DNA of 64,000 nucleotides. Source: Massospora cicadina (lineage: Eukaryota; Entomophthoromycota; Entomophthoromycetes; Entomophthorales; Entomophthoraceae). Positions 7,916-31,364 of this stretch are shown one piece after another (position 1 is the first letter of the stretch; each line of letters opens with the position of its first letter). The stretch covers positions 29,937 to 93,936 of the forward strand of contig JAKSZP010012182.1 in assembly GCA_022478985.1 (NCBI GenBank), given 5' to 3'. The notes beneath the pieces were generated by a model that was not told where the DNA came from, did not search any database, and saw nothing but the letters and a program-made list of their open reading frames with translations. The position numbers and the translations under genes were made by a program.

Positions 7916-10579
7916 TAAAATTATTACCAGGATTGATGGACTTTACCCATCTTACCATAAAGTAGTTGTTATATATTATGAAAATTTTGGGTTTTAATGA
8001 ACTATTAAAGTTGGAGAACATTTAAAAAGTTCTTTTTAAATCACAAAGAAAATGTCTACTGTCGCTTAAACTCTAGTTAGGATCATCTTGGTTTATCTTA
8101 TTTAATGGGTTTGTTTTAAATTTATAAAGAGATATCAGCAGTGCGCCGGCTTAATGGTCAAGGCTTATCAACAACCCTGACGGCCCTAACTTATTTTTAG
8201 TTCACTGATGTTTGATATAAAGGGGGATTGTTAAGATTTTGATTGAACAATAATATGAGATTTTTATATAATTATTACCTTAATAGTAGAATTTTATCAA
8301 ATACTTTGCCCCTGATACAGCAACAACCAGTTATTTTTCTCCACTATGTTTAGATGGGCTATATTTCCAAAGCAAAGTAATATCACAGTTGTTCAATAAA
8401 GATCAATCCTATGACATCCTAGCGGCGCTAAACCTTATATTACGGATTTACTTTGATAATCTAGACTCAGCAGCCATTTACAATTAAATTTTTAGCTATA
8501 TTAGACTCTTGAGGAGTGGTAACATAGCAGGGTGGTTCCTGCTCCACTCTAGGTTGGATTTTGATTGAAAAAGGTTTGAAACCAGCACAGGAAAACTAAA
8601 ACTTGGCGTGGTATATTTGTCCTAAGGTTGACCTACCTCATTTGCCTTTTTTATATTAGACTCTTAGCAGCGCCGCCATAAACACATTGCTAAAGTGTTT
8701 TAATATCCTTGCTAAATTGTCACTGTATAATCAATATATGGGTGATTGCAAAAATTTGTGAATGTCCCAAGACCTAAAATAGTCTTTATGCCTTTTCCAA
8801 ATATTATGCAAATAACTTGAAATCTTAAGTGCTGCTCAGATACAAAGGATTTGGAACAATGAGAAACCTGTAGTTTGAAAAATCATATTAGGAAGTGACT
8901 CCCATTTAGTAAGTGGATCTTGTTACCATATTAAAAATAAAACCTACCAAAAAACTTTGCTATTGACTGTGAGCCCCCCAAGTCACTGTTAATATAAAAT
9001 ATACAATGTGCTTTATTTTGAGTTTTAAACCCTGTTTATAATGAGTAAGGTTTCATTTTATGTTCCAAAGGTCAATGTCTCATATGGTAATCTTAAATAC
9101 AATGCAAACCTAATTGTGCATTTTGAGACCTGAAACTACTGCACAAATTTCAACAAATTAACAAATCAACAAATGTTGCATTGATGTGGCTGTGGAATAT
9201 TGCAGGCCATTTTTTAACCAAACATTATGATCTAAAAATAGAAAACCTTTAAAATGCATAAAACAATATGTCATTACTGTCTCTTCTTAATGTGGATTTA
9301 GTTTAAATCGTTTAAGCAGTCATGCTTTGTGAAGACTTTGTTCTAATCACCAAATCTGATGATTTGAGATTCCATGGGATGGTATGCAGATCCAGTATTG
9401 TGACATTACCCAAGTTATCATAATTAGATGATGGGCGTAGAATACTATTTCAAATTGTCTCACTCACTCAGGGTGTTGATTAAAAGGTTGAACCACTTAT
9501 GATAGATTGTTTATTTGATCACAAAGTGCATCACCAGAAAGTTCAAAAGGCTGGTTCTTGGGTATTCAGGACTTTTATCTATGGTTTTAAGCATGTCCAA
9601 CCATATTAAAGCCTTGGAATATTATTAACAATGGATGGTCTTAAGCACATCAGAGCTCCTATTAACCTCTGCTCACAACAATAGTACTAAGTAAAACTTT
9701 TGGCAGAAATTTATGCTATTTGGCGTTATTAGCACCAAATAAAACAATAATAAAGGAAAATAACATACAAGATTTATATTATTAAATAAAGTAAAAGTAT
9801 ATATATTGCATAAGACATCTGGGTTGCTAGAAGTAGGACTTGATCTATATCAAACCAAATTCTTCTCATAAGGCGATTTTGCATTTGCAATATTTTTTCA
9901 ATTTCAGAAAATACAAATCCTGATTCTCTTTGATAAGCTCTTTGTTTCAATCATATAATATAATGTTAAGCTCTTTATGATTTGTATATATGTGGCTTTT
10001 TATTATGAGCCTACCTGTGGCTCCTGTTGTTTTCATGACCCTTGTGGCTCTTGAGGCTGCATGCGCATCTTAATCATAACAATTGATGGATTTTATAATT
10101 AATTACTACCCAATATATTTATAAGCTCATTTATAGAGCTGTGAAATGGGGAAACTCTCTTTATATGGGATTTTGTTAATCTATATGGCATTAACAGTTG
10201 AAACCAAGGGCATAAAAGGATTCCATAATACATTGTTTGTGATATTATGTGCATACTTTTTCAACCAGTATAGATAATGTTGCGTCCTTTGATGCAATAG
10301 TGACCAGCTGTAAAATATTGTGGAGGTCAGGGATATATAAAGCCCTATGTCATCAAGTACTTTGACAAACTAAAGGCCTTTAACAGTGGCTTTGGAATTT
10401 TATAAACCATTTTTGATTGCTGGTAAGGTTATATGAGACTCAATTGCTATCCAGGCTAGCTAATAAATCACAACTGATGTTATTATCAAAAGAAATGGGG
10501 CTTTCTGAAGAGGGGTTTCACTAGGGAGAGGAATTATACCCTGTATTTGAGCCTTTTTCAACATTACCTCCCAAGAAGA
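7916..10579. other. AT-rich region without recognisable genes
   Basis: No open frame of note on either strand and no domain recognised. It contains the interrupted hairpin at 8514-8549 and a short repeated phrase (ATATTAGACTCTT near 8499 and 8650). Probably old, degraded repeat or intergenic DNA. Confidence 0.6.
8514..8549. repeat. Two-part inverted repeat
   Basis: GAGTGG (8514-8519) pairs with CCACTC (8544-8549), and AGCAGG (8526-8531) with CCTGCT (8538-8543). A six-base bulge lies on the left side and the terminal loop is GTGGTT. Twelve base pairs in an AT-rich setting; function unknown. Confidence 0.55.
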
Positions 10580-10592
10580 GACCTCGCCTTAG

Positions 10593-11072
10593 CTGCGGTG
10601 GCCTCTCCTCATTGCCAAAACTACGCACCGCGGTAGCCCAGTCAGTGGCTCAGCTCCAGCATGGCCTGCCCACCATCTTCTTCCCCCCAACTTCCCTGAA
10701 TCTCCCTGCAGTGACATCTCAAAACTATTTGATGATGCTGAAATCGCTGTTATGAATGTCACAACGCTTGCTTCATTCAACCCCTCAGCCAAAATCACCT
10801 GCCACAGTATCTCCCTTTTCACCCAACTTCCTGAAGCCCGCAAAGAAGCTGAAGTTCTCCTCACAGCTTTTGTTGCAACACTTTCCCATCATTATATTGA
10901 TGCAGAAGTGGAAAACTCCTACTACGCTGACCTCAGCCCCCACTATGCAGATGCCTCAACGCCCTGGCTCTCTGCTCTGATCTGGTATTGTAACCAACAC
11001 CCTTTGATCGAGGTGGGTCTTTCTGAAAACCAACCCCCCAACCCCTCCTCACCCTCTGCCATGGTGGGTTAA
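10593..11072 (+). pseudogene. N1 ORF1-like C-terminal fragment
   Basis: One frame is open for 160 codons from 10593 to the TAA at 11070-11072; an internal ATG lies at 10752. Segments KITCHSISLFTQLPEA, YADASTPW and PSSPSAMVG align with N2's VITSHNIASFTLLHDA, HADATTP and PSSPSALVG. Both proteins end at the same place, so this is a conserved protein C-terminus. No similarity to LINE ORF2 was seen. Function is inferred only from the family: an ORF1-like nucleic-acid-binding protein. Confidence 0.6.
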
Positions 11073-11130
11073 GCAGTTTCTGCTTCCCACCTGGTTAGTA
11101 GTTTATATTGCCGTTTTGAGTGTTGTGATT

Positions 11131-11159
11131 GGTACTGTCCATCCCCTGGTCGGCGTACC
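11131..11159 (+). promoter_or_regulatory. N1 3'-terminal hairpin (LINE-like)
   Basis: GGTAC-TGT-CCA-TCCCC-TGG-TCGGC-GTACC: outer stem GGTAC/GTACC and inner stem CCA/TGG. The length is 29 nt, as in the LINE copies, whose outer stem is GGAAG/CTTCC. The changed stem bases still pair. Likely an RNA element recognised by the LINE reverse transcriptase. Confidence 0.65.
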
Positions 11160-11176
11160 TCGAATCAATCAATAAA

Positions 11177-11959
11177 TCCTAAGATGAGACCTCAAAAGAA
11201 ATTTAAGTGATACATGTGGACTCAGGTATAGCGATATATGAAGTATCAATCTTGATATTGTATTTTTTCATCTTCTCATGACAAAGGTTGAAGGTCCTGT
11301 CCAGACATTCTGTAAATTCTCAAGTTTTTCTCCCCTCACAAAACATAAAATCACTTTCTGTTCCACCTCAAATGAGGTAAACTAAGTTTTATGTCACTCT
11401 CTTTGGTACTCTCCTTGAGTGACTTAGTGATGCTTCTGAAGTTCATCTGAATCTTAACCAACCCCTCCCCTAAAACATCCTGATATCTTTCAGTGTATAG
11501 ATTTTTTGTATCTGCGTTCATTAATGAATTTACCACCTTGGTACGCAGCTTTTTATCTGTATAGAGCTTTGCATGGTGACATGCCAATAGTCCTGTGATA
11601 CTCATTTAGTAAGATCTGGGCTGAAGGCAGCAAGATGTCCCTTTTTGATCTCTGGTTGACTTTAATCTTTTTTAAGGTTGACGTGAGGGTTAAAATAAAC
11701 TCTTTCCAAACATTTTTGCTCAAGGTTTTTATATGATGTGGTAAACTACTTCTTAATACTCACTAAGCCCATCAGGCGTCTCACAACATCTATGATAAAA
11801 TCTGTCTATCAGAAAAGTAGCATCTGGGGAATCTAGGGTTAGTAATAAACTGGTTGTAGAGGAATCTTATTGTAACTTTAAAGGAAAGCAATAACTGCAT
11901 TCCCTCTATTTATTTAGTGAAGTGGTTCTTACATTAATGAATTATTGATTCCCATTAAC
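11177..11959. other. No recognisable gene
   Basis: AT-rich. A minus frame of 84 codons (11351-11605) has no recognised motif; it could be the downstream end of the Ty3 relic at 11960-12640, but no integrase core motif was found here. Confidence 0.4.
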
Positions 11960-12640
11960 TAATTTTGGAAATGGTCCTACAAGGTTGAATATTTATAAAA
12001 AAGGCGCGCTTGGAAAAGGACTTATTCTTGAACTTCTATTAAGTGGCTTGTATTGGGAAACATTTAACACAGAGCTCCAAAGCCTGGATGAAATCGTCCA
12101 ACTTTGCCTCCCAATAGAACCTCTCCTTGAGATGCAGGTATCTTTTTTTGGCCTTCCATGGACTACTTGTTGGTGCCATTTCATAATTATTTCCATTTAA
12201 TTGCTTGTCTTCGCATAGGGTACCTATTTCCCTTGCACTAATTTCTTCAGCTATATTTCACCAATTCTCATTGCTAATGAACAATTAAAAATAATCTTCT
12301 TCATGCGTCTTCTATTTCTTCCCATTCCTCCTCTGGCCATCATATTTATCTATAGATTTTATTGCTTTTGGGGTTTGCAAGTGGAAAATGGTTTATAGTA
12401 AAAGCCATCTTCATCAAGTGCTACTCTCCTACCAGGTGAAGGATCTTAAAGTCAAAACATTGCAACTGAACTATTATCTTGCAAGTATTCAATATAGGTC
12501 TTCTAATTTCATCACCATCTCAGTGAGGCGTGGTCTTTTATCATCTTAATGTAAGCCATAAACATAAGGTCAGAAGTGGTTTGCATCTTTGATCACAGCT
12601 AATGTAAGGCTTTCCATTATGGGCAAGAAGCCAGTTGGTG
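11960..12640 (-). pseudogene. Degraded Ty3/gypsy pol relic (RNase H to integrase HHCC)
   Basis: Several minus frames, broken by stops, give Ty3 landmarks in the right order. SLTLAVIKDANHF and DHASLRW (about 12.63-12.52 kb) resemble the RNase H Glu helix and DH motif. FDFKILHLVG (about 12.45 kb) resembles the FDF-I-H-PG connector. LHLKERFYW, then LELCVKCF (about 12.15-12.05 kb) resembles the RFYW...CxxC part of the integrase zinc module. No frame is intact. LINE copy 1 lies just upstream in element sense. Confidence 0.5.
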
Positions 12641-12962
12641 CCTACTGCCCCTTTTCATGTAGAAAAGGCTAATTTTTTTTGTAATAGATGTCCTATAATT
12701 GTGCTCACATCAATCCAACTCCTTCCTGGAACTTGGTATGTTAAAAAGGTTAAGCTCTTGCTAGAGAAATTCCTCAACCCTAACAAAACGCCAAAAGAAC
12801 ATCATGTGATTCCCCCAATACTGCCGCTCATTTATTCCAAAGATTACAATTTTCAAAAATGTTTAATGCATTTTGTTTTATGACATCCCAGAAATGATAA
12901 TTAAATTTTGCTGAGAAAGATTGAAAATTTTAATTCCATTTTTTTAGACTAAAGCAATAACA

Positions 12963-12980
12963 AATATCCCATCCCATGTT
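12963..12980. repeat. Target-site duplication of LINE copy 1, left
   Basis: AATATCCCATCCCATGTT, identical in all 18 bases to 18257-18274. It flanks the 3' end of the minus-strand LINE. Confidence 0.92.
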
Positions 12981-13007
12981 TTAAATTTAAATTTAAATTT
13001 ATTGCGG

Positions 13008-13036
13008 GGAAGGCTGACCATGGGACGGACACTTCC
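13008..13036 (-). promoter_or_regulatory. LINE copy 1 3'-terminal hairpin
   Basis: On the minus strand: GGAAG-TGT-CCGT-CCC-ATGG-TCAGC-CTTCC. Outer stem of five pairs; inner stem CCGT/ATGG with one G-T wobble. It lies just before the AATAAATTT tail. Confidence 0.7.
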
Positions 13037-13124
13037 AAATATGACTCAGACGAGACAAAACTCAGTACCAGGGGAGGCACCCCAGAGAAGCGATGCTATC
13101 TCTTGTTGCCAGCGGGAACGCCAC

Positions 13125-16100
13125 TTATGGGAAGGGGAGGGAACGTGTGTAGGGGACGTAGCCACAATTGAGCACGTGTGGAGGAAGGGGTCTGATTTGA
13201 TGAACCAGAATGGGAACCAGGAGGAGACCAGCTGTCAGCGATGCGGTGGGAGATATCCAAACATCCACGCTTGAAAGTGATCCACCAAATGAGACCGGAA
13301 TCTGTGGACAGCTTCAGGGAGGGTGGGGATGGATCCAGCGATGGCATCCAAGACAATCGTGTGGATAGTCCACATGGCGATTGCAACCACCAGAGCATGG
13401 AGGGAGGGTGGGAGGGGGAGGCCATTGATATAGCAAACATATAACTTGACAGACTGAAGGGATGTGTTTGATCCTGGCCTAGCAGACGTTGGACTTCGCG
13501 CCATATTACTTTAGAGGTGGGGCACTTCTCCAGGCGGTGAAACAGCGTTCCATACTGGCCACACACGACACAGGATGAGTGTAAAGCATTAGAGAGCTCA
13601 GCTGTACGATACACCCGCCTCAGGCAGCGCCACACATGGGAGCAGATTTGAGGCTGCAACAGAGGATGGTGTGCGTATTTCCAGATAGTCTTTTGGGTCT
13701 CAGTGGAATAAGGGATGTCCATCATGTCCAGGTAGTCCACCCTGGATAGGACTTAGGGTCGAATGGGGATCACGCCATCATGGATGGTTAGTACCTGTAC
13801 CTCTTGTGTGAACTGAGGAGAGGGGCGGCCTCTTCGGGTTGTATGTCCACTAATATGAATTCTCCACTCTGCGCTTCGCATGGAGAGTAGGATTCGTTTG
13901 TAGTGGGTTTTGGTCCCGTGAGGACCTGTGTCTGATGTGTGTGATGCGAGGTATTTCATCAGGGAGTGGGGGTTTGATGGATTGTTGAGGCCCAAGGCTC
14001 AGGAGAAGTTGGAGTGGGCCACGCGGGACCAGTGTTGGGATGGGAGTGTAGGAGCAGTGACGGCCGCAATCCAGGTGCCCAGGATCTTGGCGGCATGGGC
14101 TTTGAAGTCAAGTAGGCCCATGCCACCATGATGATGAGGGCCAAACATGACCTCTAGCCGTACTGGTGGAGGGCGGCCTGACCAAAGCCAACCTTGTAGC
14201 AAAGCATACAGGGATTTGAAGAAGCTTGGGGAGAAGGAGATGCGTGGGCTCCAAACCAGACTTTGGATAGGAGCATAGAGTTGGCAAGAACAACCCTGCC
14301 AGTGAGGGTAGTAGGGTGGGCTCTGAGAGAGGCAATTCGCTTCGTCACGTTGTCCAGTATATGGCACTCCATTACTGCTGACGCGTATCCACCTGCCTCC
14401 AACCATACGCCCAGATGGCGTACCAGTCCTATGAAGGTCGCGGCACAAAGGGGAGCACCAGTGGAGCGGTGTGTTTTGAGTTAGTAAGGCGTGGACTTGG
14501 GCGAGCAGATGGGCCAGGTTGGGATCTACTTGCTGGGGCCCAGCAGTTCTGAAACCGACCAAGGAGGATAATTTCAGTTTTGGAGGCGTTCAGTGCCGCG
14601 TTGCTTACCCGGGAATATTCCTGGATGAGGGCTTCAAGCGCGCGTGCATCTTTGTTATTAGACACCCCCACCACGCAATCATCTGCAAATGCCATCATCT
14701 TGACTGGGGTTTGGCCTGGCACATGGACCCCAGTGAGTTGGGCATTCACATTTCGCAGTAGTGGGTCAAGGCTGAAGTTGTATTAGAGTGGGCTCAGGGG
14801 GTCCCCTTGTCGCAGGCCCCTTTGAGGATGGACTACTTCCGTTAGGAAACCTGGGCCGCGCACTGCCATTGTTGCAATTCCGTGAGCAGCATCACCCAGT
14901 TAATGAAGCGGGGAGGTAGGCGGAATTGTTGGAGGCAGGCCCTAAGGTATTCCCAGTTTACTCTATCATAGGCCTTTTGTTGGTCCAAGAATACAAGTGC
15001 CCCAGAGGCTGTGGACTGACACACATTAGCCACAGAGTGCACGTTATCCCAAATTGACCTTCTGGGGATGAATCGAATTGTTCTGGGGAGATGGTGGCAG
15101 AGGCTACAATCCCTAGACGGTTAGCCATTATTTTAGTTAAAATCTTTATATTCATGTTAGTTAAAGAAATGGGGCGCCAGTTGGCTAAGTCTAGCCTATC
15201 CCCTTTCTTGAAGAGTGTGACCGTAAAGGCCTCATGTCCTCCTGGTAGGAGGCGCATTTCCAACAGGCTTTAATTAAGTGAGGCTAGCAGCAATGGGGAT
15301 ATTTATTTAAAATATTTTTTGTAGAACTCATATGGAATGCCATCTGGGCCTGGGAATTTTCAGTTTGGTGCACCGCGAATGTTAGTCCATAATTTGTCCG
15401 GAGTAATTAAATTCATTATTTCTGGGTATTGGAAAATGGTGCAGATATGAGCTCTGTCAAGAAATTCTGCCATTTTGGCTGGCTGAATTGGTTCAGCTTG
15501 GTATAACTCAGAGTAATATCTTAGCATTTCGATTGCCACTTCAGCTGGTGTGTCCACAATAGAATTATCCGATCTTCGCACCTGTGTGCAGGCCACGCTC
15601 TGGCGTGGTGCAAATTTTTTTTTTGAAGAAGTATGCAGTGCACTTGTCACCTTTAGTGATGCGTGTGGCCCTGTATTGGACACAAACCCGATGTTTTTGT
15701 TGCCTTTCAAGTGCGTTGAGGTGGGCGGCTGCCTCCGCCCACTTCTGGCCCCATGCAGGGCTATAACCTGAGGCTGGAATGTTGGACTCCAAATGGCCAA
15801 TTCTGCCAGCGCGCGCGATATAACCGCCGATGTGGCTCATGAGCTTCTGGATGAGAGATGGCGATAGTGGCGGATGGTGTCTTCTTTGAAAGTTGCCCAT
15901 GTGGAAATGGGGTCCACACAAAACGGTGCAACAAACAATTTTGCCAAAGTTGCCTCTTCCACCCACATGGAAAATCCTGGTGACGCAAGCTCTGGGGGCA
16001 GATTTCGCACCAATGTGGGGCCTTTGCAACTGTGACAGGTAAGTGGTATGTTATTGAGACCAGTCAGTGGTTGGAGAATTCCATTTTCGTTATTTTGAAA

Positions 16101-16746
16101 TGGGAGATGTGGGGTTGGAATTTCGCCGGCGCTAGAATAAGGTTGATGCAGGTCATGGACCTTAATTGGCCGTTGTGGACGTGGGGACGCATCATGTTTT
16201 CAAGCAGTGGGGCATGTCGTGGCAGCACATCCATTAACCCAAGGGTGGCTTTTAGAACGCGTAGTTCTACATGACCCTGTGGGGCATGGGGTGAGGGCAG
16301 CCATCGGTCTGTTGGTGAGGTTAGCCAACAGTTCATGTCGCCAATTGGGAAAGAATTGGGGGGTAGCGGGAGGGATTTGACCAACGAGAAAAATTCCTGA
16401 CGCTCTTGTGCACCGTTTGGGGCATAAATGTTGACAATTGTGTGTGCAACATCAGCCCATGAGAAGGTGACAATGAGCACTCAGCCATTTAGGAATATTT
16501 CTGAAGATGTAAATTTGAAAAAAATTGTTTTTCCAAATTAGCACCCCACAGTGCTTCGACCAAAAGGATAGGGATGGTAGGAGCATTGTTTTCTAAGCTT
16601 CCTTGGAACCTCGTGGACAGTGGGACTCCTGGATGGCCAGGATATCCACGGGTAAATTGTTTTGTAAAACTCAGTTTCCTAGCCCAGGACAGGGAGGCCT
16701 TGAGTCCGGCGATATTCAGCATCCCTAGAGTGAAGGTTTCCCCCAT
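13125..16746 (-). pseudogene. LINE copy 1 ORF2: endonuclease, reverse transcriptase, CCHC
   Basis: The ATG at 16746 overlaps the ORF1 stop (TGATG). Endonuclease (16746 to about 16050): LNIAGLK, NIYAPNG and GDMNCW are present, but the RIDLIL and SDH motifs read CINLIL and SNH, so two Asp have become Asn. RT (about 15.3-14.4 kb): LFKKGDRLDLANWRPISL, VFLDQQKAYDRVNW, MAFADDCVVG with the intact FADD pair, NASKTEIILLG. C-terminus: CVVCGQYGTLFHRLEKC (C-x2-C-x7-H-x4-C). An in-frame TGA at 15360-15362 and frameshifts near 14430 and 13415 are shared with copy 2. No RNase H was seen. Confidence 0.9.
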
Positions 16747-18162
16747 CACACCTTAGGTGCGAGGGGGTGGGCCCCAGGCCCACCAGCCTCTTCCAGGTCC
16801 CCACAGGCTTTCACAGCAGCGCGGGTATAAGCAGCAACGCTATCAGGGTTTTTGTTAATTTTTGTGGAAAGAGTCACATTGGCTTTGGCCTTCGCTTTTT
16901 GTTTTCCTGTTGTCAGATGAATTTTTTGCGGTGCGGATAAGTTCGGTGCACCGTCGAGTGGGGCAAAAATTTTTTGGTTGGGATAGGTCCCAAGTTGGTT
17001 TCAACCAGGGCTTGGGTGCAGCGATTGGGTGAGATTGAATCTCCCATCAGATCCTCAGATTGAGTGGCCCATTTGGCGTGGGCCTCCCAATCTGATTGGG
17101 TGATGGATTCCTGAGTTGCTTCCGCCGCGAAGGTCTCCATGTCCTCCTGGCGTTGTGAGTGTGGGATGGTGGTGGTGGCCTTGGCTGCTTCCTTGGCTGC
17201 GGTCCTACGGGCCTTCTTGGCCTTCTTCTGCTCCTGCGGGGAGATGGGCTTTACCAATAGGTAGCAGCCTTGTGCTCCCCATGGTAAAGCCTCCTTGGTG
17301 CTTGTGGTTGGTTCATAGTGCGCCTCTCCGCTGGCCATGGCCACCGAGGGGTGCTCTTGGAATGTGACGCCCTCTTTAATGGGGCACGCATGTGCCTTAT
17401 GGCCGAACGCGTCACAGTGGGTGCAAATGGGGGGCGCGCTGTCCATGGTTACCCGGAATGGGTGGGTGGTGTGCCCTGTGATGTCAATAAAGGTGGAGTA
17501 CGGGATCTGGGTTAGGTCCTTCACGATCTCCTCAGTTGGGGTCAGAACTGCAATGGCTTTGCCGGTGCACAGGTGTGGCATCAGCATGAAACGTTGCATT
17601 TTGGAAGATTGTATTTCGCCATATATGGCGAGACCATCTTTCAGGTGTTGCTCAAAATGTCACGTTTTACCGTAGTAGGCAAAAAGTCAAACGTGAGGAA
17701 AATATGGTTTGATTTTGTCCATCTGGTGCATTTAGTTTCAACGACCCATTGCCCTTCAGGGAGGTTGACCACTATGCGCACCGCTGCAGCCTCGTCTGCT
17801 GCTATTTTGCTTTCAAAACCTAGGTCCAGCCAACCGCGCGACATGGAGTGAGGTGAAACATACACCGCAGTCAGGAAAACTTTTGTGTACATCTTCACAA
17901 AATTTTTCTATAGGGCCGTTTTTTGGATGTCCAGATACACACGGACTCCAAATTCCACTGACAAAAGTGGCTGGGAATGTGGCGTGTTGATGTACTGGTT
18001 GCATCGTGCTTGCCACGCGAGTATCTCTGGGGAAATTGTGACCGCCAGTTTTTTTAGATTTTTTTCTATTCTGCCAGATTCTCTGGGGCGTTTTCGAACA
18101 TTAGAGGCTGCAGGCCTTCCGCCTGCTCCTCTTGCCTTGCTTGCCCAACTGCTCCCAGACAT
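16746..18162 (-). pseudogene. LINE copy 1 ORF1 (CCHC nucleic-acid-binding protein)
   Basis: Start ATG at 18162 (MSGSSWASKARGAGGRP) as in copy 2. It is split by frameshifts into 18162-17908, 17898-17641 and 17599-16913. The last piece contains CTHCDAFGHKAHAC, a C-x2-C-x4-H-x4-C zinc knuckle, then Lys/Ala-rich and acidic segments. The frame resumes to end APKV-TGA at 16748-16746, overlapping the ORF2 ATG. ORF1 proteins of LINEs bind their RNA to form the ribonucleoprotein. Confidence 0.88.
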
Positions 18163-18222
18163 GGGCGCAGACTAATCCCCTCTATGAGATTATCAAACTA
18201 GATTTAGTCTTGAATTGAATGG

Positions 18223-18242
18223 GTTGCAAAAGTGTTTGCAAC
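18223..18242 (-). promoter_or_regulatory. LINE copy 1 5'-terminal hairpin
   Basis: GTTGCAAA-CACT-TTTGCAAC on the minus strand: perfect 8-bp stem and 4-nt loop, starting 15 nt from the element's 5' end. The same structure occurs in every other copy, with changes. Confidence 0.7.
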
Positions 18243-18256
18243 GAGAAAGAAAAGTT

Positions 18257-18274
18257 AATATCCCATCCCATGTT
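18257..18274. repeat. Target-site duplication of LINE copy 1, right
   Basis: Identical to 12963-12980 over 18 bp. It flanks the 5' end of the LINE and fixes its first base. Confidence 0.92.
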
Positions 18275-18511
18275 AACTTTAATAAAAGCTCCAAATACAT
18301 TAAATATTTGATTTTATTAAAGAAAGGCAGTTAAATCTACAGAGTCCTCTTCAAATCCATTTTACCCTCCCTTAAATTATTCCCTCAATGTCCTTTCCTG
18401 ATAATTTAAAAATTTGCTGTTGACTGAGAGCTGGAACTACAAAGATGTAGCGCGCCTTGATTTAGAAAAATATTTAAAAAATAAAAATAGCTAAATTAGG
18501 GGCAACCAATT

Positions 18512-18742
18512 ATGGCGTACCACACCACCTCCCCAACCTCAGTTATCGCGCCGCCTCAAGAATTAGCTCTATACATTCCTCAACTCTGTGACATTTTTCA
18601 AGTTGACACTCTCCTCCTCAGCGCGAACCCTGGAAACCTGCAGCATGAGAAGATACTAACACAAGAGCTACATAACCCAAGAAGAGCGCCAAGAACCATA
18701 ATACCCCATACCCCCTATAAAGGTCAGTGCCCTTACTTGTAA
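18512..18742 (+). CDS. 76-codon hypothetical ORF ending in a hairpin
   Basis: ATG at 18512; the stop lies inside the hairpin loop region at 18740-18742. The peptide is Pro/Leu-rich with no recognised motif. The base composition is more coding-like than the AT-rich surroundings. It may be the fragmentary 3' end of another retroelement. Not supported by homology. Confidence 0.25.
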   Translation: MAYHTTSPTSVIAPPQELALYIPQLCDIFQVDTLLLSANPGNLQHEKILTQELHNPRRAPRTIIPHTPYKGQCPYL

Positions 18743-18754
18743 GGGTACTGGCCT
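18721..18754. repeat. 15-bp stem hairpin with CTTG tetraloop
   Basis: AGGTCAGTGCCCTTA (18721-18735) pairs with TAAGGGTACTGGCCT (18740-18754) with no mismatch apart from two G-T wobbles; loop CTTG. It is followed on the + strand by a T-rich stretch. It could be a transcript-end structure or the 3' end of an unidentified element. Confidence 0.6.
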
Positions 18755-18989
18755 ATTTTGTTTTATTTCATTTGTTTTTTATATATAGATTATTTCCCAA
18801 TCCAATCTTTGAATTTTTTGCCATTTTTGAAGAGAATTCTTTGCAGTATGTAGAGAACAAGGACAACATGCTCCACTAAGAAATGGTTGAGCCCTAGATG
18901 GATACAAAATTATGGACCCACATGGACAGCAATTGCTTTGTTCCTCTGGTGGCTGATTAGAAACCGCCAGTTTGGAACAATATCAAACT

Positions 18990-19960
18990 TGAGCACCCCC
19001 GCTCCCAACAGCTAGACACACATGCTCTGTAACTGTGCAATTTCGCTATAGTTTGGTGAATGTCTTTGATTAGACTCTATAAGGTGACTACTCCTTCTTC
19101 GTCCAACTGAAAAAGAGATGTAGTCCATACCCAAGTTGCTAGTGACGGTGTATATGTAGAAGTTTTTTTCAAAATCTGAGTATATCTTAAACTTGGGCTT
19201 ACATTGGTTTCTGCTTAAGCTGTTTGAAAGCATATTCTTGCTTTTGTTCCCAATTGAACTGTACTCCTTTATTGAACAGGTGTATGCGTGGCTTTGCACT
19301 GTCCTTAAATCTTGGCACAAATTAGAGCATATCCTAACATTCCAAAAAAACTTTGCATCTCTCATGCAAATGGGGAACTCATCCTGGCAATAACTTTGAT
19401 CTCCTTTTGCAAGTATTTAATTCCTCTTTTATTCACCTCATGGCAAAGAAATTATAGTTAGCTCTTAAAAATGACAAATTTCTTCTCTTTATCTTGAGAT
19501 TGTTCTCTCTCAGGCAGGTGAAAACCTCCTACAGGTGTGACAGGTAATTCTTGAATGCCTTGCTGAACACCATGATAAGTCTAAGTATATGAGTGCACTT
19601 GACATATTCAGATCTTAATATTAATCTATTACTCTCTATATTGTAGCTGGGGCGTTGCATAAACCCTATGACATATGTGTTTTGTGCAGTCCTTAGATGG
19701 TTATCAGCGTACAGTTCTCCTGGTCTTCTGTTGACAGCTCTATAAGACAGTTCCACTTGTCAGGTCCATTGCTGAGAAGTAGCGCGATCTTTTTTTAAGT
19801 TGTCAAGCATTGTCATTATGCGTTATTGTGACAATTATCTTTTAGTTAAGTCGTTAAGTCTTCATAATACATGACTAAATCTGTGGGTCCCATCCTTCTT
19901 TCACACCAGAAGAAGGAGAGACGCCCAAGGACTTTAGGAAGGGCGTACTAAGCCTACAAC
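18990..19960 (-). pseudogene. Degraded Ty3/gypsy RT and RNase H relic
   Basis: Reading minus frames in order gives SPWASLLLLV and KKDGTHRF (about 19.92 kb, RT fingers), GLCNAPATI (about 19.66 kb, the FGLxNAPATFQ box), IYLDLSWCS (about 19.58 kb, a YLDD box missing one Asp), then FNWEQKQEYAFKQLKQKP (about 19.25 kb) and TVTEHVCLAV (about 19.02 kb, RNase H). Many stops and frame changes. It could come from the same old insertion as 11960-12640, but both contain the E..xLAV segment, so two separate elements are as likely. Confidence 0.7.
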
Positions 19961-20770
19961 TTAAAATGTTACAATTCCTTTAGAGTGGCTTCTTTTGAAA
20001 TGTCAATATGGTCTTTATTGAAAGTTATGACACTTCCAGTATCAATTTTGAACTCCTCCCTTGCATAAGCCACAATCATTGGTTCTGTTGGTGAAAAATC
20101 TTGATATTACACCAAGATTTTAGTATGTTCACTTTCTCACTGTTTATTTAGGTATTGAAGCCCAATTTTCAATGCCAGCAGTAGCAAGACTTAAATCTAT
20201 GCCAAATAGAGATACATCTTTGCTTTAGCACTAGTTTGATCCTTCTTTATCTTAACAGGGGCTTTATAATGTTCCCATGGAGGCTTTTGTGTAAAGACCA
20301 GCAGGAAACATGCTATATGTTGCAGATACCAATACCATCCTAAAAGAACTAGCCACTTTTACTTGAACTAAAAACCAAAATACAAGATAAATTAGTTATG
20401 CTAGATTTATTAGAAATTTAAAGAAGGAATGATTGAGTGATGACTTGGATTTAAGTCTTTAAAAATATACTATCAATCTGAATTATATAAGGTTAGAGTA
20501 GACTTTGGGACTTATTTTCGTACATTCAAGTCTTTTAACTATTTATTAATTAAATATTGAGAATAAACAAATCGATTTGAGCTATTGAATGCAACTTTGT
20601 TCATTTTGATTAGATCAGTAATTGCTGAGTTACAATTGTTTAAACTTGGTTATTCAAAAATACAATTGTCAGGAGAATCCTGAATTTTTGATTTATCCTT
20701 GATGTCAATCATTAAAATCCAGGCACCACTCTAGATTCTTGATATTTAACTTCTTTGGGGCAGTAGATTA
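19961..20770. other. No recognisable gene
   Basis: AT-rich. Minus frames contain short Ty3-like phrases only near 19.95 kb, and nothing recognisable above that. Confidence 0.45.
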
Positions 20771-20804
20771 AAAATTTAAAATTTAAACTTTAGATTTATT
20801 TTGA

Positions 20805-20833
20805 GGTATGCCGACCAGGGGATGGGCATTGCC
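20805..20833 (-). promoter_or_regulatory. N2 3'-terminal hairpin
   Basis: Same 29-nt frame as the LINE hairpin. On the minus strand: GGCAA-TGC-CCA-TCCCC-TGG-TCGGC-ATACC. The CCA/TGG inner stem is intact. The outer stem retains three of five pairs; TGCC/GGCA gives an alternative stem. Confidence 0.55.
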
Positions 20834-20919
20834 AATGCTTCAAAAGCAAAAAAAGGAACCAAAACAAAAGAAATGACAAAACAAAAGAATCCTTCAACCA
20901 GGTATGGTGTAGAGGACCT

Positions 20920-22612
20920 CTAGCCCACCAAGGCAGAAGGTGAGGAAGGTTCAGGTGGCATCTCTGCAGGAACAACAGGTTTGACTGGAGTAGTATAATT
21001 GAAGAGGCGGATATAAGCCAAGAGCAAAGGCGTTGTGGCATCAGCATGTTGTGGGTCAAAGTGTGAACAAAAAGTTGATATCCTAAATATTAGCTTGGAT
21101 GATAACTTCTAAATAATCTGCAACATGATTTTCAGCTTGAAGGCAGGCATCATGGAGTAGGGTAAAACTGGCAATATTATGACTAGTAATCACAGTGTTT
21201 GGGGCAAATTTCGCTAGTTCAACAACATATGTGGTAGAGTTGATTGCGGCATCAACCAATAGTTGATTTCTTCGCGTGCTTCTTCAGGAAAATCAGTGGG
21301 AAGTTAGATAAGTGCAGCCCTTTGTTCAAATTCATAAACTGACTCTTCCACTGCTTTCCAGTGGCGGTGATAATAGGTGAGGCTACTGTTGCTAAGGCAA
21401 GCTGGTGGTCACTTTGGAAGGGGATGGCATTGGGCTTAAGGTCAATACGTCTTTGTGGGTGTGGTTTGTCAAAATCTTAGTTGAGAACTTCATTAGACTC
21501 ATATTAATCTGGGGCTTCTTCACCTTATTTGGCAATCACCTTTGGGACAAGTTCAACTAATTTGTCAACCTCATCCAATAGGGCCAAAGGATTTTGGTTC
21601 AACTCGAACAGAGGAGGCAGAATTTGGGTGAGTTGAAGTAGGCGATTGAGGAGTTGCTTGGGGCAAACAGTGGTCCAAACCTGATTATAATTGGTTGGGT
21701 TGAATTTGGGTGGGGGAGTGTGGCTGGAGGTTTTGGTGGGGCAGATTTCTTACTCTGGCCTCATAAGCTAGTGTGATGTTTGGGATGAGGCAACACAACA
21801 CACCATTCAAATGCCGCTGACAAGGGTTCAGAAACAGCATTAGAGGAAGCGGAATAAGAGCAGGACTTTTTAGAATGGCCAACCCCCAAAAAGAGGGGAC
21901 AAATCTGGCAACCATTATTGACACAAGCCTAAAAGAAATTCTCTGGTGCTGCCACAATGTGAGCATGGGGGATTTGTTGTGCTATGGCAGAGTGGTGTGA
22001 GATTAAGGTGGCTGTGACATGAGGTACAGTAAGGCGCTCTGCACCAAAGGGAACAGTGAAGATGATATTAGGTTGATTGCCATAAGAAAATGCTCCTCCA
22101 TCAACTATTTATACAAAAAATGGGGTAGGAGGTGGGAAAGGAGGGACGCAAATGTCACCACCAATGTGGGTCATAAGGGAGGCAAGTAAAGTTAGTAGTA
22201 AGGGGAGTATTTTTAAAAATGAGGGGAGTCAGATATGCTGTGGCAGTATACTCCTCCATTTGGAATCATATGTCAAAATAGCCATTAAAAGGGCGGAAAT
22301 CAATTAAGCCAGCTGGTGTGAGGCAGTGATGGCTAGTTCAATTATTGATTTTTTGGTATACTGGAATAAATGCCCATAGTCAATACAGAGGCAAAATTGA
22401 ATATTGGTTTGAGGAAGGGTGAGTGGGTGAGGTCAAGAAGAGTGGATGCGCGTAAGGTGGAGCACTAAGCTCCATGGGGGGACAAAACAACTGGAAGAGT
22501 TTAGTGGGCTATTTGATTCCATTCAAATGTGTTTGCCCACAGGGTGGAAAATGCTAGGTGGTGGAGCACCCCTGCCCCACACAGGGGCAGCAGGCGGCTG
22601 ATCCAAGGACAT
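20920..22612 (-). pseudogene. N2 ORF1-like protein with zinc-knuckle remnant
   Basis: From ATG 22612 (MSLDQPPAAPVWGRG) the frame runs a long way with only isolated stops. It includes PNIIFTVPFGAERLTVPH, an RNA-binding-fold-like strand pattern, and CQICPLFLGVGHSKKSC, a C-x2-C-x7-H-x4-C knuckle. After a Pro-rich linker and at least one frameshift come VITSHNIASFTLLHDA and the terminal PSSPSALVG, shared with N1. Estimated size is about 560 codons. The layout parallels LINE ORF1 (knuckle, then linker) but direct similarity to it is weak. Confidence 0.6.
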
Positions 22613-22660
22613 CAATGAAAGAGACGTGGCCAGGCGGCTGTGGTAGTTTAACTTTTTTAT

Positions 22661-24308
22661 ATATATTCGCTTTAAAGTGATATTAAGCGGAATAAAAAAC
22701 TTTTTGGAGTTGGTAATTTTTAGTTTAGTTATTTCAGTTGTGTTAACATGGGACAATACCTCACCAGATTATTTGAATATGAGAAATTCAAATGAATGAG
22801 AAAGGAGGATGAATCTATTAAATCTCCACATATGCCATTCTGGTAGGCTAGGAAGTCCATGGACCGCCTAGCTATTCAAAATCTCAGTTTAGGGCATTGG
22901 TCACAAGGCTATCACATTCAAAGATTGTCCTCTATACAAAGTTATCTACCAGAATCAAACTTGGGAGGTAGTGGTCATTAAGTCCACACTCAACAACTGG
23001 GGCACCCTCCCCTGTTAGTTTTATAAGACTTTAACAAAATTTGTTTGAAAAAGAAAGTTAAGCTGAAATAATTGTTCCCTTAAGATATATGTTAATTGCA
23101 TTAGTATATTGATGGTGGTTTCATTTTAAAACTTTCTTTACACATTCCCTACCCCAGACTTTATATAATGGATTGATGTTGGAGCATTAGCCTGTGGCAC
23201 CAGCCAATATTTTTCTTCACCATCCTATCAATCTTGAGCGCCTCATGGCACCCTAAGTTAGTGCCACCATATCCTCCGCCACCTTAATACTGCCCAACAG
23301 ATCACCTCATGTGCTCACATTACATCAGTTTTGACCATTCATTCTGTAATAAATTTAATTACGGTTGGAAAAATAGCCCCTTTTCTTTGTGTTAGATCAC
23401 TTAAAAAGTCTTTTTTCATGTCACAAACACTACTAAAAACTCTTAGTCTTGCTGACAAGCCTCTTCCATTTAACTGGTAACTTGTTGTCCCATCAACCCT
23501 ACTTACTCATTATCAAATAAGAATTTTTCCACTGAACAAACAACCAATCACATTATTTGTCCTAAATTTTGTTATATACAATTAGGAAGATGCTTAAACC
23601 TCCATTATCACCTAATAATCACCCCAATTTCTTGCCCAAGTCCAACAAAAACTAAAATGTCCCATTAAATATTTCGATTTTATTTTAATTATTGAATAAG
23701 TTACTGAAATATGTTATATTTCTGTCCTCACACAAGACAAATGCTTTTTAATTTTGGCGTAGATTCTGATTCTGATCATAAACTTAACCTATGTGCTATG
23801 TATCAAAACCAATGCCAAATAAATCATTGATGATCATAAAATCAGCATGTTTTTAGTTTTTAATAAAAAGTCTTTCCTTCCACATTGCACTTTTGAGTCA
23901 GTATGTCTTCTAGCATCTAACTTGCCCTCTATCGCTTTTCCCAATTTTCATCACACTACTAGAAATAAAAATCAACAGACTTAACAAAACTGCATCATGC
24001 CTCTCAAGAAATTTTATATATCACTTTTTTTCTGATAACAAGATTGTCACCTCAAATAAAAATTACTTTGCCCAACTCCTCAATACTCACATATAAGTGA
24101 AATTACTTCACTGATTATTTTGAAGCCCTTGGCTTGAGTGCCAGAAAATTAACCAGATGGATTTCTCCCAATAAAATCAGAGGTAGGGGTTTCAGTTAGT
24201 TAGGGGTGATTACTGGCTATTTGCCTAGTTCAATATTTTAATGTTAAATAGAGGGTTAATACTTGTGACTAATGCTAAGTATGGTGACCAATTAATACTA
24301 AACTTATT
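22661..24308. other. No recognisable gene
   Basis: AT-rich sequence. The frame 22523-22756 mostly overlaps the N2 5' region. No retroelement motif was recognised between 22.8 and 24.3 kb. Confidence 0.5.
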
Positions 24309-26115: not shown

Positions 26116-26134
26116 TTTATTGTTAATCAGTAAA
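26116..26134. repeat. Target-site duplication of LINE copy 2, left
   Basis: TTTATTGTTAATCAGTAAA matches 31418-31436 with one difference (C/T). The right copy partly merges with the AAATTT tail. Confidence 0.85.
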
Positions 26135-26148
26135 AACTTTTCTTTCTC

Positions 26149-26218
26149 GTTGCAAACACTTTTGCAACCCATTCAATTCAAGACTACATCTAGTTTGATA
26201 ATCTCATAGAGGGGATTA
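26149..26218 (+). promoter_or_regulatory. LINE 5' UTR hairpins (copy 2)
   Basis: Hairpin I: GTTGCAAA-CACT-TTTGCAAC, 26149-26168. Hairpin II: TAATCTC (26199-26205) with GGGATTA (26212-26218), ending 10 nt before the ORF1 ATG. In copies 3 and 4 hairpin II reads TAATCTC/GAGATTA, fully paired. Probably structured 5' UTR RNA acting in translation or RNA packaging. Confidence 0.6.
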
Positions 26219-26228
26219 GTCTGCGCCC

Positions 26229-27652
26229 ATGTCTGGGAGCAGTTGGGCAAGCAAGGCAAGAGGAGCAGGCGGAAGGCCCGCGGCCTCTAACGTTCAAAAA
26301 CGCCCCGGAGAATCTGGCGGAATAGAAAAAGATCTAAAAAAACTGGCGGTCACAATTTCCCCGGAGATACTCGTGTGGCAAGCACGATGCAACCAGTACA
26401 TCAATATGCCACATTCCCAGCCACTTTCATCGGTGGAATTCGGAGTCCATGTGTATCTGGACATCCAAAAAATGGCCCTATGGGAAAAATTTTGTGAAGA
26501 TGTACACAAAATTTTCCTGACTGCAGTGTACATTGCACCTCACTCCATGTCGCGTGGTTGGCTGGACCTAGGTTTTGAAAGCAAAATAGCAGCAGACGAG
26601 GCTGCAGCGGTGCGCGTAGTGGTCAACCTCCCTGAAGGGCAATGGGTCATTGAAACTAAATGCACCAGATGGATAAAATCAAACCAAATTTTCCTCACAT
26701 TTGACTTTTTGCCTACTACGGTAAAACGTGACATTTTGGAGCAACACCTGAAAGATGGTCTCGCCATATATGGCAAAATACAATCTTTCAAAATGCAACA
26801 TTTCACAATGATGCCACACCTGTGCACCGGCAAAGCTATTGCAGTTCTGACCCCAACTGAGGAGATCATGAAGGACCTAACCCAGATCCTGCACCCCACC
26901 TTTATTGACATCGCAGGGCACACCACCCACCCATTCTGGGTAACCGTGGACAGCGCGCCCCCATTTGCACCCACTGTGATGCATTCGGCCATAAGGCACA
27001 TGCGTGCCCCATTAAAGAGGGCGTTACATTCCAAGAGCACCCCTCAGCGGCCATGGCCAGCGGAGAGGTGCACTACAAACCAACCGCAAGCACCAAAGAG
27101 GCTTTCCTGTGGGGAGCACAAGGCTGCTACCTATTGGTAAAGCCCATCTCCCTGCAGGAGCGGAAGAAGGCCAAGCAGGCCCATAGGACCCCATGGCCAA
27201 GGAAGCGGCCAAGGTCACCACCACCATCCCACACTCACAACGCCAGGAGGACATGGAGACCTTCGCGGTAGAAGCAACTTGGGAATCCATCACCCAATCA
27301 GATTGGGAGGCCCAAGCCAAATGGGCCACTCAATCCGAGGATCCAATGGGAGATTTGATCTCACCTAATTGCTGCACCCAAGCCCCAGTTGAAACTGACT
27401 TGGGACCTATCCCAACCAAAAAAAATTTTTTTGCCCCACTCAACGGTGCACCGAACTTATCCACACCACAAAAAATTCGTCCGACGTCGGGAAAATAAAA
27501 AGTGAAGGCCAAAGCCAATGTGACTCTTTCCGCAAAAATTAACAAAAACCCCGATAGCGTTGCTGCTAATACCCGCACTGCTGTGAAAGCCCGTGGGGAC
27601 CTGAAAGAGGCTGGTGGGCCAGGGGGCCCACCCCCTCGCACCTAAGGTGTGA
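26229..27652 (+). pseudogene. LINE copy 2 ORF1
   Basis: ATG at 26229, open for 303 codons to 27140. Basic Gly/Ala/Ser-rich N-terminus, then a folded region (VYLDIQK, IFLTFDFLPTTVK, GKAIAVLTPTEEI). One base is missing in a C-run just before the knuckle, so the CCHC is read out of frame (copy 1 has CTHCDAFGHKAHAC here). The original frame resumes in 27193-27498 (Ala/Lys-rich and acidic) and ends APKV-TGA at 27650-27652, sharing a base with the ORF2 ATG. Near-intact but inactive. Confidence 0.9.
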
Positions 27653-27654
27653 TG
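27650..27654 (+). promoter_or_regulatory. ORF1 stop / ORF2 start overlap TGATG
   Basis: The ORF1 TGA (27650-27652) and the ORF2 ATG (27652-27654) share an A. The same TGATG occurs in copies 1 and 3 and TAATG in copy 5; copy 4 has CGATG. Such overlaps mediate termination-reinitiation in other retrotransposons and viruses. This decides the ORF2 start. Confidence 0.75.
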
Positions 27655-30600: not shown

Positions 30601-31276
30601 TACAGGGGCTACCCATCCATGATGGCGTGATCCCCATTCGACCCCAAGTCCTATCCAGGGTGGACTACCTAGACATGATGGACATCCCTTATTCCACTGA
30701 GACCCAAAAGACTATCTGGAAATACGCACACCATCCTCTGTTGCAGCCTCAAGTCCGCTCCCATGTGTGGCGCTGCCTGAGGCGGGTGTATCGTACAGCT
30801 GAGCGCTCTAATGCTTTACACTCATCCTGTGTCGTGTGTGGCCAGTATGGAACGCTGTTTCACCGCCTGGAGAAGTGCCCCACCTCTAAAGTAATATGGC
30901 GCGAAGTCCAACGTCTGCTCGGCCAGGATCAAACACATCCCTTCAGTCTGTCAAGAGATATGTTTGCTTCATCAATGGCCTCCCCCTCCCACCCTCCCTT
31001 CGTGCTCTGGTGGTTGCAATCGCCATGTGGACTATCCACACGATTGTCTTGGATGCCATCGCCGGATCCATCCCCACCCTCCCTGAAGCTGTCCACAGAT
31101 TCCGGTCTCATTTGGTGGATCACTTTCAAGCGTGGATGTTTGGATATCTCCCACCACGTAGCCAGCAGCTGGTCTCCTCCTGGTTCCTAGTCTGGTTCAT
31201 CAAATCAGACCCCTTCCTCCACACGTGCTCAATAGTGGCTACGCCCCCTACACACGTTCCCTCCCCCTTCCCATAA
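27652..31276 (+). pseudogene. LINE copy 2 ORF2: endonuclease, reverse transcriptase, CCHC
   Basis: Endonuclease: LNIARLK, VDILAIQETHC with the catalytic Glu, NIYAPNGAQE, SMTRIDLILAP and FSDH, interrupted by a stop near 27918 and a frameshift near 28050. RT: IPYEFYKKYF, LFKKGDRLDLANW (two bases lost directly after), VFLDQQKAYDRVNWEYL, FADD at 29711-29722, NASKTEIILL. C-terminus: CVVCGQYGTLFHRLEKC near 30828. Shared with copy 1: TGA at 29037-29039, a frameshift near 29965 and one near 30990. ORF2 length, about 1200 codons, fits LINEs lacking RNase H. Confidence 0.9.
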
Positions 31277-31364
31277 GTGGCGTTCCCGCTGGCAACAAGA
31301 GATAGCATCGCTTCTCTGGGGTGCCTCACCTGGTACTGAGTTTTGTCTCGTCTGAGTCATATTC

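What the first reader, a model, noticed from the sequence alone, without database searches (positions are those of the whole stretch)
10580..22660. ORF1-only retroposon family (N1, N2) riding on the LINE machinery
N1 and N2 encode homologous protein ends (ITxHxI..FT.L..A, ADA(S/T)TP, PSSPSA(M/L)VG-stop) followed directly by the LINE-type 3' end. N2 has a long ORF with a zinc knuckle but no endonuclease or RT. That is the layout of 'half-LINEs' such as mammalian HAL1: an RNA-binding protein on a non-autonomous element. The protein is not simply the LINE's own ORF1, so it may descend from a separate LINE lineage that acquired, or kept, the same 3' signal.
Basis: partly seen in the sequence, partly recalled or inferred. 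Interest (0 to 1): 0.8.

Follow-up and report, generated by a model that had tools for sequence, protein, structure and literature searches.

The report
Gag-only LINE parasite in cicada fungus
A very common jumping gene in a cicada-killing fungus makes an RNA-binding protein but no copying enzyme, and carries the same kind of end signal as the fungus's self-sufficient jumping genes, which probably copy it.

Summary
The finding is real and larger than described. The window is inferred to be Massospora cicadina. N1 (10586-11176, +) is a 5'-truncated copy with target-site duplications; N2 (about 20757-22704, -) is an old full-length copy with broken frames. One genome search returned 30 near-full-length relatives: a 1.9-kb element, copies 96-97% alike, one ORF (568 codons open in 3 of 30) ending PSSPSAMVG-stop shortly before a LINE-type 3' hairpin. 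27 of 30 have 13-20 bp target duplications (0 of 150 controls); 0 of 30 hold a detectable EN or RT inside. The ORF's first half (RRM-like, CCHC knuckle) is a distant homologue of LINE ORF1; its C-terminal part has no detectable counterpart there. Three further lineages (N2, N3, N5) have the same ORF-then-tail layout, and the N and LINE 3' stems covary. Best reading: an old gag-only retroposon lineage mobilised by LINE enzymes, like HAL1 and HeT-A in layout, apparently of separate origin. Not settled: whether an ORF2-bearing relative exists, because the genome search answered once only. What the protein does is inferred; 19 of 27 readable young copies share a run-length difference that shifts the ORF's end, real or an assembly error.

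The parts
10586..11176 (+). N1: 5'-truncated copy of the gag-only element (C-terminal part of the ORF plus 3' UTR and tail)
   Evidence: 96.8% identity to the 3' part of L010, homology starts at 10583; TSD
10569..10585 (+). N1 target-site duplication, 5' copy
   Evidence: 15 of 17 bp match with 11177-11193; 0 of 300 control position pairs score as high
11177..11193 (+). N1 target-site duplication, 3' copy
10593..11072 (+). N1 open frame, 159 codons, end of the N protein (PSSPSAMVG-stop); its first codons, before the C-rich run, are in another frame than the N protein
   Evidence: 28 proteins match, top hit 91% identity
11131..11159 (+). N1 3' hairpin GGTAC...GTACC, just before the AATC/AATAAAT tail
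   Evidence: folding energy alone not significant
20757..22704 (-). N2: old, full-length, broken copy of a second subfamily; ends approximate, TSD not established
   Evidence: end-to-end alignment with L002 and L027; TSD test weak, 11 of 300 controls as good, and run with a wrong 5' boundary
20920..22612 (-). N2 ORF remnant (frameshifts and stops), start near MSLDQPPAAPVWG, end PSSPSALVG-stop
   Evidence: third-codon-position excess against L001, p 6.9e-6
21860..21910 (-). N2 CCHC zinc knuckle CQICPLFLGVGHSKKSC
   Evidence: read; corresponds to QICSLCFGLDHAKKAC of P0030
22668..22689 (-). N2 5' hairpin CGCTTAATATCACTTTAAAGCG
   Evidence: alignment to CGCTCAAAGTCACTTTTGAGCG of L002; for the relatives
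20793..20834 (-). N2 LINE-type 3' end
12996..18256 (-). LINE_A (LINE1 family), frame-broken; ORF1 with CCHC; 18/18 bp TSD
26132..31405 (+). LINE_B (LINE1 family); zf-RVT E 4.6e-5 (below its cut-off); TSD 18/19
31906..37164 (+). LINE_C (LINE1 family); RVT_1 E 2.2e-33; TSD 16/16
37680..52533 (+). LINE_D, split by an insert between about 42301 and 51920; its tail is at 52516
52572..57730 (+). LINE_E

Best explanation
N1 and N2 belong to a gag-only, non-autonomous retroposon lineage in the fungus Massospora cicadina. SHOWN: a full-length unit is about 1.9 kb: AAAACT(T)CTCTTTAACC, a 5' hairpin, one ORF of about 570 codons (an RRM-like fold at residues 70-147 of P0043, a second possibly RRM-like stretch, a CCHC knuckle, a C-terminal part of roughly 300 aa), a short 3' UTR, and a 3' hairpin followed by (GAATAAATC)n or a related tail. 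Copies sit in 13-20 bp target duplications and can be 5'-truncated, the signature of target-primed reverse transcription. The 3' stem is of one kind with that of the fungus's LINEs; the nearest LINE tail seen for N3 and for young N alike is that of LINE2. The protein's first half is a distant homologue of LINE ORF1. INFERRED: the RNA is translated into the N protein, which coats it in cis as LINE ORF1 proteins do; the RT of a LINE such as LINE2 then recognises the 3' hairpin and tail in trans and copies the RNA into a nicked site. The lineage probably descends from a LINE of the same group that lost ORF2 before the known subfamilies split.
For: 30 of 30 fetched copies share the ORF and the 3' end (26 by a strict tail pattern, 4 by a relaxed one); 24 of 30 reach the common 5' start. 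TSDs of 13-20 bp in 27 of 30 against 0 of 150 mismatched pairs (score 11 or more); N1 15/17, 0 of 300 controls. Empty site: removing one copy (L007) and one TSD restores a continuous LINE RT match, residues 39-216. No LINE match inside 30 of 30. ORF1 homology: hhalign 95.3% and 96.8% probability, E 2.4e-8 and 2.1e-10 for the single comparisons, on thin alignments; BLASTP P0043 against LINE2 ORF1 34% over 120 aa, E 5e-13. RRM-like fold. Tail: 89.4% of cells paired and 14 double-change cells, 0 of 500 shuffles reach either, slid versions at most 57.6%; N3a and N3b each 38 of 42 to LINE2b, young N (NL16) 36 of 42. Selection: L001 and N2 differ 176/147/240 at codon positions 1/2/3, p 6.9e-6. P0043, an open 587-aa relative from an unnamed source, 41-44% alike where matched over most of its length, has a similar C-terminal end.
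Against: None of the 8 LINE tails seen equals the young N tail (GGTAC/GTACC, GAATAAATC). Use of LINE RT is inferred from signatures. N2's TSD is not established; 3 of 30 copies lack a clear TSD. In one search two measures are not beyond shuffles: pairs with a double change (3; 33 of 500 shuffles) and further pair types (5; 220 of 500); the stem was drawn from these same sequences, and folding energies of the N1 and N2 ends are not significant. 19 of 27 young copies with a readable C-rich run have one base fewer there than the copies with the whole ORF open, N1 too, putting the last quarter in another frame (3 copies not readable): either an assembly homopolymer error or a spreading broken form. 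The 30 copies were chosen by protein score; only 74 of 101402 first-look candidates were scored.
Confidence: 0.84

Rival explanations
1. An autonomous LINE with the N-type ORF1 and its own ORF2 exists in this genome, and the ORF-only copies are internal deletion derivatives of it (a TAHRE to their HeT-A).
For: The N ORF1 half is a LINE ORF1 homologue and both ends of the element resemble LINE ends, so such an ancestor probably once existed. The genome-wide test could not be run.
Against: Four lineages (young N; N2, 65% identical in DNA; N3 in L033/L039 and N5 in L039, about 45% and 27-30% identical in protein to the query) all show ORF then tail with no ORF2 seen, so the loss is older than their split unless it recurred. 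Most rows match only the N-terminal half, so ORF2-bearing elements could have scored as well, yet 30 of 30 fetched are ORF-only.
Confidence: 0.2
2. The N protein is only a passenger, or is supplied in trans: copies move like SINEs by the 3' tail and their own ORF does not matter.
For: 27 of 30 copies do not have the whole ORF open, and 19 of 27 readable ones share one run-length difference that shifts the last quarter, as if broken copies spread, unless it is an assembly error. Codon-position bias among young copies is not significant (L001 against 5 others, p 0.079 to 0.76). SINEs need no protein (established knowledge).
Against: Third-position excess between subfamilies, p 6.9e-6; shared variants are synonymous in 37 of 79, singletons in 82 of 245, Fisher p 0.044 (counts, test; weak, see report); 568 codons open in 3 of 30 copies and a 587-aa open relative.
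Confidence: 0.18
3. A host gene family, or retrocopies of a host gene that picked up a LINE tail.
For: The C-terminal part has no relative outside this family in the searches run, and records label the pieces hypothetical proteins of M. cicadina.
Against: Common ends, TSDs in 27 of 30, nested copies, several subfamilies, an ORF1-type RRM-CCHC half.
Confidence: 0.02

Closest known systems
HAL1 (half-L1) retrotransposons of mammals (Bao and Jurka 2010; seen here only as a reference and one sentence in PMC4161310; the layout is recalled)
   Same: An ORF1-only LINE relative, likely moved by a LINE of the same genome.
   Different: HAL1 is LINE-1 derived (title of the reference). N belongs with a fungal LINE whose ORF1 has RRM-CCHC; its ORF1 is only distantly like the resident LINE's and has a C-terminal part that does not match it; its tail is a short hairpin that covaries with LINE tails.
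HeT-A of Drosophila telomeres with its relatives TAHRE and TART (passages of PMC4700185)
   Same: One gag-like ORF, no RT, depends on another element's machinery; an ORF2-bearing relative (TAHRE) exists there.
   Different: HeT-A forms arrays at chromosome ends. N copies are interspersed with 13-20 bp target duplications, one inside a LINE RT gene. No TAHRE-like relative seen in the sample.
SINE-LINE pairs that share a 3' hairpin (recalled; e.g. UnaL2 and UnaSINE1 of eel)
   Same: Non-autonomous element ends in a stem-loop and short repeat like the partner LINE's.
   Different: N encodes a protein of LINE ORF1 type; SINEs do not.
LINE1 and LINE2 families of this genome (window, L009/L038, L032/L037, L035)
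   Same: 5' start, 5' hairpin position and similar loop, RRM-CCHC half of ORF1, 3' hairpin.
   Different: N has no EN-RT ORF and a different second half of its protein.

Membership tests
LINE-type (target-primed) retroposon | Target-site duplications of variable length | tested here: met
   27 of 30 copies with 13-20 bp, 0 of 150 controls; N1 15/17; N2 not established
LINE-type (target-primed) retroposon | 5'-truncated copies with an intact 3' end | tested here: met
   N1; 6 of 30 loci start later than the common 5' start
LINE-type (target-primed) retroposon | 3' end shared with an autonomous LINE of the same genome | tested here: met
   N3a and N3b 38 of 42 to LINE2b, young N 36 of 42; stem covariation. 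No identical LINE tail for young N among 8 seen; autonomy of LINE2 not shown
HAL1-like / half-LINE | ORF1-type protein without EN or RT in full-length copies | tested here: met
HAL1-like / half-LINE | Descent from L1 (L1-type ORF1) | tested here: inconclusive
   Pfam scans of P0030, P0032, P0039, P0043, P0048, P0014 gave no L1 ORF1 family; no direct comparison with L1 ORF1 was made
HAL1-like / half-LINE | Mobilised by the LINE enzyme in trans | not testable with these tools
   needs a mobility assay
HeT-A type telomeric element | Gag-only coding capacity | tested here: met
HeT-A type telomeric element | Insertion at chromosome ends in tandem arrays (passages; absence of target duplications is recalled) | tested here: not met
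   single copies between unlike flanks with TSDs; one copy inside a LINE RT gene
LINE ORF1 proteins with RRM and CCHC | RRM fold | tested here: met
LINE ORF1 proteins with RRM and CCHC | CCHC knuckle after the RRM part | tested here: met
   QICSLCFGLDHAKKAC in P0030 aligned with the LINE knuckle; Pfam zf-CCHC_4 only at E 0.26 in P0030 and none in P0032, P0043

The most novel reading that the evidence does not exclude
N is a long-lived, independently evolving gag-only LINE lineage. It lost ORF2 before its known subfamilies split, kept its own RNA-binding protein under selection, has a C-terminal domain unknown in LINEs, and follows the resident LINE families by re-fitting its 3' hairpin and tail (N3 shares even the outer GGTTAAATAA of LINE2; young N has its own GAATAAATC), so that coding parasites of LINEs, not only SINEs, evolve by tail matching.
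Probability: 0.3. Interest if true: 0.75.

Novelty: new variant of a known kind. Interest (0 to 1): 0.6.

Why it matters
Gag-only LINE relatives are known to me from HAL1 in mammals and HeT-A in flies. This would be a further, apparently independent case, in a fungus with a 1.5-Gb genome, with several subfamilies. It makes testable why a non-autonomous element keeps an ORF1 protein when SINEs manage without, and whether the 3' hairpin alone decides which LINE copies it. It also warns that dozens of deposited 'hypothetical proteins' of M. cicadina (47 clusters met here) are pieces of a transposon.

Tried and rejected
Host gene family: rejected by TSDs and common ends. Internal deletion of the window's own LINE1: rejected, because the ORF is only a distant homologue and its C-terminal part matches nothing in LINE ORF1 (hhalign 0.1% probability). 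N2 TSD: the formal test used a 5' boundary (22640) that proved wrong once the end was found near 22704; at the corrected end I saw no clear duplication by eye and did not repeat the test. Pfam found nothing below E 0.1 for N1 or for six N proteins. The structure model of LINE ORF1 (mean pLDDT 40) is not used. A fold family absent from the lists is not thereby excluded. Viral contigs held no relative of P0043. RNA folding energies of the single 3' ends were not significant for N1 and N2 (z -0.74 and -0.27). In one search the row 'C-term' starts at codon position 3, so its list 104/78/60 is positions 3/1/2. The synonymous test compares with copy L001, so L001's own private changes count as shared; the copies were picked by protein score; a first Fisher test used a mistyped cell (45 for 42; p 0.064), the right one gives p 0.044. 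In some searches the row named LINE_E is in fact the tail of LINE_D. An early count of open ORFs read only one strand of each locus; one search recounts all 30 in the right orientation (3 open, not 2). Papers: search listings, with starts of abstracts; passages of PMC9584336, PMC11105155, PMC4161310 and PMC4700185. I saw no report of gag-only LINE relatives in fungi in those listings; subscription journals are not held.


Full report
WHERE IT IS. The window is G000:C10547:29937-93936 of a 1.47-Gb assembly. The N1 frame matches 28 proteins, all 28 named Massospora cicadina, top hit 91% identity, and a 1.488-Gb M. cicadina assembly with 92% transposable elements is published (abstract and passages of PMC9584336). 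The host is therefore inferred to be M. cicadina, a fungal parasite of cicadas. A comparative paper says that M. cicadina shows an expansion of LINE elements after its Ty3 expansion (passage of PMC11105155).

OBSERVATION. The motifs of the finding are there. The N2 C-terminus matches N1-type proteins at 35-42% identity, and N1 and N2 run into CCCCTGGTCGGC(G/A)TACCTC, twice in the window with 0 expected; LINE copies end in CCATCCC(A/C)TGGTCAGCCTTCCCC or a near form, four times with 0 expected. N2 has no ORF of 150 codons. Five LINE copies are in the window: A 12996-18256 (-), B 26132-31405, C 31906-37164, D 37680-42301 with its end at 51920-52533, E 52572-57730. All five show ORF1 pieces with a CCHC knuckle; RVT_1 was found in LINE_C (E 2.2e-33) and zf-RVT, below its cut-off, in LINE_B (E 4.6e-5). 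LINE_A, B and C have TSDs of 18/18, 18/19 and 16/16, 0 of 300 controls each.

THE FULL ELEMENT. With the 587-aa relative P0043 as query the genome gave 84 matches; 74 of 101402 first-look candidates were scored. 30 loci were fetched. All 30 hold the same unit, 1828-1941 bp as cut, each with a median identity to the others of 95.6-97.2%. The 5' start is AAAACT(T)CTCTTTAACCGCTCAAAG; 24 of 30 reach it, 6 start later. The 3' end is ...TACCTCRAATAAATC, in some copies followed by repeats of that unit. 27 of 30 have direct repeats of 13-20 bp with at most one mismatch at or near the ends; none of 150 mismatched pairs scored 11 or more; the three without are L002, L009 and L016. The copy in L007 sits in a LINE RT gene; taking out the element and one TSD in a script turns two RT matches (residues 39-133 and 108-216) into one (39-216). 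In 30 of 30 the order is N-terminal part, C-terminal part, tail, with no LINE1 ORF1, EN, RT or zf-RVT match at E 1e-3 inside.

THE ORF. Three of 30 (L001, L021, L028) have the whole ORF open, 568 codons from the first Met, ending PSSPSAMVG. In 12 of 30 the frame runs to the same other stop, at 2868 in locus coordinates. The cause is the length of one C-rich run: 19 of 27 readable copies, and N1, are one base shorter there than the open copies, 7 are of the same length, one is longer, 3 were not readable (my classification of its printout). Nanopore assemblies often shorten such runs (recalled; a repository named is for an ONT assembly), so this may be an error; if real, broken forms have spread.

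N1 AND N2 IN THIS FRAME. N1 is a 5'-truncated copy, 96.8% identical to L010 over 592 aligned positions, with a 15/17 TSD, 0 of 300 controls. N2 aligns end to end with L002, 1250 of 1934 aligned bases identical; its 5' end is near 22704 and its TSD is not established.

OTHER LINEAGES. By chance a more diverged copy lay beside L026 (L033): ORF end PSPSTMEG-stop, then a tail. L039 holds a second copy of this kind (N3, ORF end PSPSAMEG-stop) and a still more distant one (N5, 27-30% identity to N queries over its N-terminal part), again ORF end and then a tail-like stretch. P0043, from a source without organism name (lgn, contig of 1857 bp), is open over 587 aa and ends PPSPSAMDSS; genome copies matched over most of its length are 41-44% identical to it. 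So at least four lineages in this genome have the ORF-then-tail layout.

THE 3' END. On 17 tails (9 N, 8 LINE, picked by hand from those I had; four of the 30 young copies) the five-pair stem is mostly GGAAG/CUUCC in LINE1, GGUAA/UUACC in LINE2 (AGUAA/UUACC in N3), and GGUAC/GUACC or GGUAC/AUACC in young N. 89.4% of cells pair and 14 cells change on both sides, 0 of 500 shuffles reach either; slid versions pair in at most 57.6%. Two other measures are not beyond shuffles (33 of 500 and 220 of 500). N3a and N3b each agree with LINE2b at 38 of 42 positions, NL16 with LINE2b at 36, N3a with NL16 at 34, N3a with LINE_B at 26, NL16 with LINE_B at 28, N2 with LINE2b at 28. Upstream of these 42 bases the N3 and LINE2 3' ends are not alike by eye.

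THE 5' END. Young N (2 copies) and LINE_A, B, C start with a similar run and then a stem of 7-9 bp about 15-17 bases in; LINE_E has a longer one (z -2.7 to -4.0 over the six). Stem sequences differ (CGCUCAAAG, GUUGCAAA; in LINE2 GUAAC by eye) while the loop keeps TCACTTT or similar. Covariation of this stem was not counted.

SELECTION. L001 and N2 differ at codon positions 1/2/3 by 176/147/240 (p 6.9e-6); the C-terminal part alone gives 78/60/104 (p 0.0032) once its offset is corrected. L001 against five young copies shows no significant bias (p 0.079 to 0.76). Among the 30 copies, variants in 3 or more are synonymous in 37 of 79, singletons in 82 of 245 (Fisher p 0.044; variants in exactly two copies, 29, left out). 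The reference is one of the copies and the copies were picked by protein score, so this test is weak.

ABUNDANCE. Two N copies in 64 kb would scale to some 46,000 in the genome if the window were typical; the 101402 first-look candidates are of that order, but this is no count.

MECHANISM. Shown: LINE-type insertion, ends, lack of detectable EN-RT, ORF1 homology, a shared kind of 3' stem. Inferred: translation, binding of the RNA in cis, copying by LINE RT in trans. LINE2 has the nearest tail to N3 and to young N among the LINE tails compared, so it is the best candidate partner; an exact partner of young N was not found.

WHAT IS OPEN. HAL1 and HeT-A are precedents for the layout, so the kind is known; the apparently separate origin, the extra protein part and the several lineages make it a new variant.

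Noticed in passing
window 26132-57730: Four LINEs (B, C, D, E) lie head to tail in the same orientation with short spacers; the spacers B-C and C-D are not alike, and B and C have different TSDs, so they look like separate insertions. LINE_E starts right behind the end of LINE_D.
   Followed up: partly
window 42301-51920: LINE_D is split by a 9.6-kb insert with a direct repeat near both ends (42301-42600 and 50737-51036, 90%), probably an LTR retrotransposon; a gag-like frame lies at 49654-50121 (-).
   Followed up: no
window 689-988 and 6589-6888; 1325-1624 and 7225-7524: Direct repeats spaced 5900 bp (82-90%) around RT-like frames at 3.1-4.8 kb and a chromodomain-like frame at 1835-2392 (-); looks like a Ty3-type element (labels recalled, no search).
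   Followed up: no
window 26132-26172, 18216-18256, 31907-31947, 22668-22689; L002:1388-1432: A 5' hairpin at a near-constant distance from the start in N and LINE elements, with different stems and a similar TCACTTT loop: a possible packaging, translation or priming signal.
   Followed up: partly
C-rich run in the N ORF (e.g. L007:2796; window near 10683): 19 of 27 readable young copies, and N1, are one base shorter here than the open copies: assembly homopolymer error, a spreading frame difference, or a slippery site.
   Followed up: partly
P0001-P0042 and P0044-P0048: 47 protein clusters named hypothetical proteins of M. cicadina match this retroposon; several look joined by false introns.
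   Followed up: partly
P0043: A 587-aa open relative on an 1857-bp contig of a source labelled lgn without organism; 41-59% identical to the genome copies over the parts matched (N-terminal and whole-length rows), so perhaps another species or an old lineage.
   Followed up: partly
L036:4340-4381 (-): 3' end of a further LINE (GGAAG...CTTCA) unlike LINE2 and somewhat unlike LINE1.
   Followed up: no
L005, L007: Young N copies inserted in the RT genes of LINE copies.
   Followed up: partly
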